From assembly GCA_039545315.1 (NCBI GenBank), contig BCIM01000001.1, positions 1,668,807 to 1,732,806 of the forward strand: DNA of 64,000 bases, in the 5' to 3' direction. Shown one piece after another: positions 46,844 through 47,000 of this stretch. The notes beneath the pieces were generated by a model that was not told the origin of the DNA, searched no databases, and saw only the letters and a program-made list of their open reading frames with translations. Source of the stretch: Kondoa malvinella (taxonomy: Eukaryota > Basidiomycota > Agaricostilbomycetes > Agaricostilbales > Kondoaceae). The translations under genes were made by a program, and so were the position numbers. The stretch's first letter is position 1; each line of letters starts with the position of its first letter.

Positions 46844-46851
46844 AAAAAAAA
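46844..46851 (-). terminator. RNA polymerase III terminator (T8)
   Basis: On the minus strand eight consecutive T lie 14 nt after the tRNA-Asp 3' end. This is the standard polymerase III stop signal and supports transcription of the tRNA gene. Confidence 0.75.
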
Positions 46852-46865
46852 CCCAGAACGGAAGA

Positions 46866-47000
46866 CTCTCTGGCCGGGAATTGAACTGTCATGANCGTTT
46901 TTGAGTTGGGAACAAATGATGATCGGAATATTACATACCCCGGGTCGCCCGCGCTTCATTGAATGACAAGCGGGTATACTAGCCACTATACTACCAAAGA
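46866..47000 (-). tRNA. tRNA-Asp(GTC) with a 37/38 intron and a 53-nt insertion in the T arm
   Basis: Reading the minus strand from 47000: acceptor TCTTTGG pairs with CCAGAGA; the discriminator is G (46866), the Asp identity base. The D arm is GTAT-AGTGGCTA-GTAT. The anticodon stem CCCGC/GCGGG closes the loop TTGTCA-C with anticodon GTC (46965-46967). A 10-nt intron (TTCAATGAAG, 46954-46963) sits at the standard 37/38 place. The T stem CCGGG (46939-46943) and its partner CCCGG (46874-46878) pair fully, with loop TTCAATT. Between base 53 and 54 lies a 53-nt insertion (46886-46938) starting GTATGT and ending GACAG. Without both inserts the molecule is a perfect 72-nt tRNA. The insertion splits the internal B box. 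A T8 terminator follows. One N falls inside the insertion. Confidence 0.85.

What the first reader, a model, noticed from the sequence alone, without database searches (positions are those of the whole stretch)
46866..47000. tRNA-Asp gene with a spliceosomal-looking intron in the T arm
All four stems of a tRNA-Asp(GTC) pair once two inserts are removed. One insert (10 nt) is at 37/38, the only usual place in fungal nuclear tRNAs. The other is 53 nt and lies between bases 53 and 54, splitting the T loop and the polymerase III B box. It begins GTATGT, has CTCAA about 19-20 nt before its end, and ends GACAG. Its length matches the 45-60 nt mRNA introns of this window. Fungal tRNA introns outside 37/38 are not something I know of; ectopic tRNA introns are known in archaea and a red alga. 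A T8 terminator suggests the gene is live. Either a spliceosomal intron has entered a tRNA gene, or the tRNA endonuclease accepts a new site, or the copy is a fresh pseudogene. The position is ambiguous by one G.
Basis: partly seen in the sequence, partly recalled or inferred. Interest (0 to 1): 0.88.

Follow-up and report, generated by a model that had tools for sequence, protein, structure and literature searches.

The report
Spliceosomal introns inside fungal tRNA genes
In this fungus a dozen of the tRNA genes examined, including the only aspartate tRNA gene found, carry what look like ordinary messenger-RNA introns in the middle of the tRNA, which suggests that the mRNA splicing machine also has to make tRNAs there.

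Summary
The minus-strand gene at 47000-46866 is a tRNA-Asp(GTC) with a 10-nt insert at 37/38 and a 53-nt GTATGT...GACAG insert at 53/54. It is the only tRNA-Asp my searches found in the 19.09-Mb assembly. Of 41 complete tRNA genes that I read there, 12 (11 anticodons) carry a 48-54-nt insert outside 37/38, at eight places. Removing it gives a cloverleaf in all 12. Of the 11 distinct inserts, 10 are GT-AG (one is GA-AG), 11 have G at +5, and 10 have a CTNAY branch-like motif (3.3 expected). In length and signals they match mRNA introns called in the same genome from codon usage. The 37/38 introns of other genes do not (0 of 17 GT-AG). Best reading: U2-type spliceosomal introns have entered nuclear tRNA genes and are removed by the spliceosome, while the tRNA endonuclease removes the 37/38 intron of the same transcript. 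U6 and U3 RNAs are precedents among small structured RNAs; I found none for tRNA. No RNA data were available, so splicing is inferred. The window's own Asp insert is the one of 11 that lacks the CTNAY motif.

The parts
46866..47000 (-). tRNA-Asp(GTC) gene, 135 nt with both inserts; 72 nt spliced
46964..47000 (-). exon 1, positions 1-37 (acceptor 5' strand, D arm, anticodon GTC)
46954..46963 (-). 10-nt insert at 37/38 (ordinary tRNA intron place)
46939..46953 (-). exon 2, positions 38-53 (15 nt, 4-nt variable loop)
46886..46938 (-). 53-nt GTATGT...GACAG insert at 53/54, spliceosomal-type intron; N at 46895
46901..46905 (-). NTCAT at 46895-46891 could fit, depending on the N
46866..46885 (-). 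exon 3, positions 54-73 (T loop, T stem 3' strand, acceptor 3' strand)
46983..46993 (-). A box region, uninterrupted in DNA, 10 of 11 consensus letters
46877..46887 (-). B box: the insert's last AG stands where GG would be, so 10 of 11 consensus letters stay together in DNA
46844..46851 (-). T8, RNA polymerase III terminator-like run

Best explanation
The 53-nt insert is a U2-type spliceosomal intron sitting between bases 53 and 54 of a working, and probably the only, nuclear tRNA-Asp gene. It belongs to a set: at least 12 tRNA genes of this Pucciniomycotina fungus carry such an intron in the D arm, at its foot, in the anticodon loop or in the T arm. The likely path: the gene is transcribed whole (A and B boxes mostly kept, T-run terminator); the spliceosome removes the GT-AG intron by the lariat route, restoring the T arm; the tRNA endonuclease and ligase remove the 37/38 intron; end trimming and CCA addition follow. 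Shown here: sequence, cloverleaf restoration, splice signals, recurrence, no other tRNA-Asp found. Inferred: transcription by RNA polymerase III, removal by the spliceosome, order of steps, function of the tRNA.
For: Removal restores a cloverleaf in 12 of 12 genes. ARAGORN, on the genes with made-up flanks, finds 12 of 12 after removal (11 with the right anticodon; Asp is called Phe) and 3 of 12 before, all three with wrong anticodons. With all 40-65-nt deletions allowed and no end rule, GT..AG lies among the deletions within 1.0 of the best score for 10 of 11 distinct inserts (1-14 such deletions per gene); chance 6.5e-17 under uniform dinucleotides. +5 is G in 11 of 11, which the parser did not ask for; -3 is C/T in 10 of 11; lengths 48-54 nt; CTNAY in the branch region 10 of 11 against 3.3 expected, none of 2000 shuffles reaching it (one of five patterns tried). 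In 244 kb (window plus 18 loci of 10 kb) codon usage with GT and AG as the only splice rule gave 109 mRNA introns (7 in the reversed control), 70 with well-coding exons on both sides (1 in the control); 46 of the 70 are 40-65 nt, with +5 G 74% and CTNAY 27 of 46 against 9.8. 37/38 introns of 28 other genes: 17 present, 6-33 nt, 0 GT-AG. Asp: BLASTN of the spliced tRNA finds this locus only; of 11 D-arm pattern hits at up to 3 mismatches the one exact hit is this gene and the three 1-mismatch hits are tRNA-Glu. Stem mismatches are no commoner in interrupted genes (5 of 12 genes) than in the 28 others (18 of 28). The interrupted tRNA-Asn (L038) has no mismatch, the uninterrupted copy (L001) has T6.T67. 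A T-run of 4 or more follows all 12 genes (11, Leu-CAG). Precedent: spliced U6 in fission yeast (PMC10484740, passages), spliceosomal introns in fungal U3 (PMC5832005, passages).
Against: No RNA evidence of any kind. The Asp insert is the one of 11 without CTNAY, and it holds an N. The two Ala-AGC genes share a GA-AG insert, not GT-AG, and have two stem mismatches each. The Ile-TAT insert contains T5 and three others T4, which could stop polymerase III. The Ala, Arg-TCG and Leu-CAG inserts split the B box and the Arg-TCT and Ile-TAT inserts split the A box. The tRNA census is incomplete (no His, Met, complete Tyr, Lys-TTT, Glu-TTC, Pro-TGG or Val-TAC gene read), so 'only tRNA-Asp gene' is as good, and 'only Trp' as good as the pattern.
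Confidence: 0.85

Rival explanations
1. The tRNA splicing endonuclease of this fungus accepts extra sites, as in archaea and Cyanidioschyzon, and removes these inserts without the spliceosome.
For: Off-site introns removed in this way are known in archaea and a red alga, and off-site introns of unknown splicing route in nucleomorphs (PMC4090602, PMC3978253, passages). My central-helix test did not exclude it: 1 of 12 off-site against 4 of 23 at 37/38 and 13% at random, so the test has no power.
Against: It does not predict GT-AG ends, G at +5 in 11 of 11, a CTNAY motif starting 15-19 nt before the end in 9 of 11, or a length of 48-54 nt like the mRNA introns; the GT-AG ends and this length are not seen among 17 introns at 37/38.
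Confidence: 0.06
2. The interrupted copies are dead genes, or the inserts are recent and never removed.
For: Insertions in the D or T arms of eukaryotic tRNA genes are supposed to be mostly pseudogenes (PMC4090602, passage). Half genes do occur here (L065, L066, L068, L042). The two Ala-AGC genes have two mismatches each.
Against: Apart from pair 13-22, mismatches occur in 3 of 12 interrupted genes and 7 of 28 others (a fourth, Trp, by my own reading of its anticodon stem). For 10 anticodons only interrupted copies were found, among them Asp and Trp, the sole anticodons of their amino acids. T-runs follow all 12.
Confidence: 0.05
3. The inserts are spliceosomal introns, but some or all of these tRNAs come from RNA polymerase II transcripts, so ordinary co-transcriptional mRNA splicing removes them. 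(This differs from the best explanation only in the polymerase; its odds lie within the 0.85.)
For: Some inserts split the A or B box or hold T4-T5.
Against: Only short ORFs (76-108 aa, stop to stop) overlap the Asp gene; it keeps 10 of 11 letters of both boxes together and is followed by T8; uninterrupted genes have the same T-runs.
Confidence: 0.1
4. Assembly or sequencing artefact.
For: Nine Ns in the window, one inside the insert.
Against: Twelve genes on eight contigs with the same signals (places).
Confidence: 0.01

Closest known systems
mRNA-type intron of U6 snRNA in fission yeast and other fungi
   Same: Spliceosomal intron in a short structured RNA made by polymerase III (PMC10484740, abstract start and passages).
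   Different: U6 is part of the spliceosome, and its intron is thought to come from reverse splicing near its catalytic bases; tRNA is not. The one U6 gene found in this genome has no intron. Here there are 12 genes and eight sites.
Spliceosomal introns of fungal U3 snoRNA genes
   Same: GT-AG introns in a small structured RNA, broadly present in Basidiomycota (PMC5832005, passages); that 2017 paper calls U3 and U6 the only small structured RNAs known to be often interrupted by an intron.
   Different: Different RNA; U3 introns cluster at a few sites in its 5' half.
Off-site tRNA introns of Cyanidioschyzon, Guillardia nucleomorph and archaea
   Same: Introns in D and T arms, including 53/54 and 25/26 in archaea (PMC4090602, passages).
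   Different: Archaeal and Cyanidioschyzon ones are removed by the splicing endonuclease at BHB-type folds; the nucleomorph ones are 3-24 nt with the route unknown. No GT-AG or branch signals are described in the passages read.
Canonical 37/38 eukaryotic tRNA introns
   Same: Present in the same Asp gene (10 nt) and in 11 of the 12 interrupted genes.
   Different: Another place; in 28 other genes 6-33 nt and never GT-AG.

Membership tests
U2-type spliceosomal intron | GT...AG ends | tested here: met
   Asp met; 10 of 11 distinct inserts; Ala is GA-AG
U2-type spliceosomal intron | 5' splice site like the host's mRNA introns beyond GT (+5 G) | tested here: met
   11 of 11; PWM mean 2.52 against 1.33 for mRNA introns and -1.20 at random
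U2-type spliceosomal intron | branch-point motif near the 3' end | tested here: inconclusive
   CTNAY in 10 of 11 inserts, but not in the window's Asp insert
U2-type spliceosomal intron | length within the host's mRNA intron range | tested here: met
   48-54 nt; 29 of 70 mRNA introns are 47-55 nt
U2-type spliceosomal intron | removed by the spliceosome as a lariat | not testable with these tools
   no RNA data
Functional nuclear tRNA-Asp(GTC) | cloverleaf with all four stems and conserved T-loop bases after removal | tested here: met
   no stem mismatch
Functional nuclear tRNA-Asp(GTC) | internal A and B boxes and T-run terminator | tested here: met
   10 of 11 letters for each box in the unspliced gene; T8
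Functional nuclear tRNA-Asp(GTC) | mature tRNA exists and is charged | not testable with these tools
   no RNA data
BHB-type off-site tRNA intron | bulge-helix-bulge fold at both junctions | tested here: inconclusive
   1 of 12 (Leu-CAG) has a 4-pair central helix; positive control 4 of 23; random 13%

The most novel reading that the evidence does not exclude
Spliceosomal introns have spread through the nuclear tRNA gene set of a fungus, so that two unrelated splicing systems act on the same transcripts and translation of aspartate and tryptophan codons depends directly on the spliceosome.
Probability: 0.72. Interest if true: 0.95.

Novelty: new variant of a known kind. Interest (0 to 1): 0.9.

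Why it matters
Eukaryotic tRNA introns are held to be the business of the tRNA endonuclease and ligase. A set of tRNAs spliced by the spliceosome would show that the spliceosome can work on short, folded, presumably uncapped transcripts at many sites, would tie translation directly to splicing, and would be a clean test bed for intron gain, since the target sequence of a tRNA gene is known base by base and paralogues with and without the intron (Asn) exist. It also means that standard tRNA finders can miss essential genes: ARAGORN finds 3 of the 12 interrupted genes, each with a wrong anticodon.

Tried and rejected
BHB test: a first version used a wrong geometry; the corrected one with a 37/38 control has no power, so I draw nothing from it. 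U6 as a second polymerase III gene with an intron: one gene found (47 of 1232 candidates scored), no intron. 5S rRNA: no match at E up to 1 (47 of 754 candidates scored), left open. A covariance model of the genome's own tRNAs was not accepted for the whole genome; on 27 held sources (250 kb, some overlapping) it gave 25 matches, all at genes already known. Human and yeast tRNA queries found only Val. The Asp insert with its flanks has no copy elsewhere, so there is no sign of a mobile family from that insert; the others were not searched alone.

Dropped before the count of 41: L061 (looks like coding sequence, chance pattern hit), L065+L067 (Tyr-like 5' half, no 3' half seen within about 345 nt), L066 (truncated Ala-TGC), L068+L071 (Arg-TCT-like 5' half with a 52-nt GTGAGC...GCAG insert at 24/25, no 3' half in the next 186 nt), L039/L042 (Gln 3' piece), L069 and L070 (no tRNA seen by eye). 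A second Ser-TGA copy (C2:494802) is known from a pattern only and was not read. Most other pattern hits were not fetched; the backward-pattern controls there gave similar totals (12 for 11 hits, 15 for 24, 5 for 8, 21 for 18), so most weak hits are chance.

Full report
What is there. The minus strand from 47000 to 46866 encodes a tRNA-Asp(GTC) of 72 nt in three exons, with a 10-nt insert at 37/38 and a 53-nt insert between bases 53 and 54 that starts GTATGT and ends GACAG. Rfam's tRNA model scores it 27.0 bits with a long gap in the T loop, under the 29-bit cut-off, and neither ARAGORN nor the default Rfam search lists it in the window. With the 53 nt removed, my cloverleaf score is 29.9, within the range of 28 tRNA genes without such an insert (27.3-30.7); shuffling the part from the 5' splice site on 150 times gives at most 18.4.

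The host. The window lies in a 19.09-Mb, 20-contig assembly. A window protein (890 aa) is 97% identical to one unnamed protein and 54-56% to four more unnamed ones; its best named relative is Mixia osmundae at 51%, followed among named hits by Microbotryomycetes and Rhodotorula (best 120 of 1430 listed). So the host is an unidentified Pucciniomycotina. No relative's genome was on hand; all comparison below is within the genome.

It is one of a set. I read 41 complete tRNA genes: 28 at L001-L028, Val-AAC at L041, and 12 with an insert outside 37/38. The 12 are Asp-GTC (53/54, 53 nt), Gly-TCC (51/52, 52 nt), Thr-CGT (32/33, 49 nt), Arg-TCG (52/53, 48 nt), two Ala-AGC genes with the same 50-nt insert (57/58), Arg-TCT (15/16, 49 nt), Ile-TAT (15/16, 51 nt), a second Asn-GTT (51/52, 51 nt), Trp-CCA (25/26, 54 nt), Leu-CAA (32/33, 49 nt) and Leu-CAG (62/63, 50 nt). 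The exact base is ambiguous by one or a few in most of them; I give the GT-AG register (GA-AG for Ala). Eleven of the 12 also have a 37/38 insert, only 4 nt in Thr-CGT. Apart from Asp, which was given, they came in through tRNA similarity, not through splice sites. After removal ARAGORN finds 12 of 12, 11 with the right anticodon; before it, 3 of 12, all with wrong anticodons.

The inserts look like this genome's mRNA introns. I called mRNA introns in 244 kb by codon usage, with GT and AG as the only splice rule: 109, of which 70 have well-coding exons on both sides, against 7 and 1 in the reversed control. Forty-six of the 70 are 40-65 nt; their +5 base is G in 74% and they carry CTNAY near the 3' end in 27 of 46 against 9.8 expected. 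The 11 distinct tRNA inserts are 48-54 nt; +5 is G in 11 of 11, +6 is T in 8, the base before AG is C or T in 10; CTNAY occurs in 10 of 11 against 3.3 expected, with no shuffle of 2000 reaching that, and in 9 of the 11 a copy starts 15-19 nt before the end (narrower patterns gave 4-8 of 11, p 0.004 to 0.0005). With deletions of any 40-65 nt allowed, GT..AG is within 1.0 of the best cloverleaf for 10 of 11. The 37/38 introns of 28 other genes (17 present, 6-33 nt) never have GT..AG ends. The exceptions: the Asp insert itself has CTCAA and NTCAT but no CTNAY; the Ala insert begins GA.

Is the gene needed. BLASTN of the spliced tRNA-Asp against the whole assembly returns this locus only. A pattern for its D arm with up to 3 mismatches gives 11 hits (12 for the backward control): one exact, here; the three 1-mismatch hits are tRNA-Glu. 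Ten anticodons, Asp and Trp among them, were found only in interrupted form. The census is incomplete, as several tRNAs that must exist (His, both Met, Tyr) were not found; an insert in the D arm would hide them from the searches I could make, but that is a guess. The interrupted genes are not decayed: 5 of 12 have a stem mismatch against 18 of 28 others, and apart from pair 13-22 it is 3 of 12 against 7 of 28 (for Trp the parser chose a 16-nt variable loop without mismatch, while I read a normal loop with an A.C at 31-39). For Asn, where both kinds exist, the interrupted copy has no mismatch and the uninterrupted one has T6.T67.

How it would work. Only short ORFs overlap the Asp gene; it is followed by T8 and keeps 10 of 11 letters of the A and B boxes, because the insert's last AG replaces GG of the B box. 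The simplest path is transcription by polymerase III, removal of the 53 nt by the spliceosome and of the 10 nt by the endonuclease. Against this, the Ile-TAT insert holds T5 and three others T4, and the A box (Arg-TCT, Ile-TAT) or B box (Ala, Arg-TCG, Leu-CAG) is split in some genes; polymerase II transcription of some of them is possible. The endonuclease alternative could not be tested by structure: the central-helix test gives 1 of 12, with 4 of 23 at 37/38 and 13% at random.

What is known. A review of tRNA introns says that eukaryotic introns are mostly at 37/38, that D- and T-arm insertions are mostly in one of many synonymous genes and supposed to be pseudogenes, and that exceptions are nucleomorphs and a red alga (PMC4090602, passages; also PMC3978253, passages). 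[quoted passage not shown] in the passages I read it names only archaeal-type introns for nuclear tRNA (PMC11782384, abstract start and passages). Ten searches of the open-access library listed no paper on spliceosomal introns in nuclear tRNA genes, judged from titles and abstract starts; several lists were capped (30 of 45, 20 of 1,439, 15 of 85), and subscription papers are mostly not held.

Verdict. What is missing is RNA.

Noticed in passing
G000: C5:938830-/940953+, C5:932028-/958717+, C13:119662+/135899-, C2:2276644-/2287409+, C2:2568367-/2573232+, C2:489892+/494802-: Neighbouring duplicate tRNA genes (2-27 kb apart) are in inverted orientation in all six pairs noticed, three of them with identical flanks where printed (the last partner is a pattern hit only).
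   Followed up: no
L034 and L037: The two Ala-AGC genes share an identical 50-nt T-loop insert (GA-AG) but have different 37/38 introns of 12 and 23 nt.
   Followed up: partly
L068/L071 (C2:1741341-1741620): An Arg-TCT-like 5' half with a 52-nt GTGAGC...GCAG insert at 24/25 and no 3' half in the next 186 nt, about 0.6 kb upstream of the complete Arg-TCT gene.
   Followed up: partly
L062 and L063: Leu-CAA, and Trp-CCA by my reading of its 3' stem (not by the parser), would have an A.C mismatch at 31-39 beside the 37/38 intron.
   Followed up: no
G000: No 5S rRNA match at E up to 1 among 47 scored of 754 candidates; rDNA may be missing from the assembly, or 5S may be interrupted.
   Followed up: no
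L064, end of the 62/63 insert: The end of the Leu-CAG insert plus exon gives GGTTCAGCGCC, 10 of 11 letters of a B box, though the true B box is split.
   Followed up: no
L065/L067 (C1:1144821-1145260): A tRNA-Tyr-like 5' half (acceptor strand, D arm, CTGTAA) without a 3' half seen within about 345 nt.
   Followed up: partly
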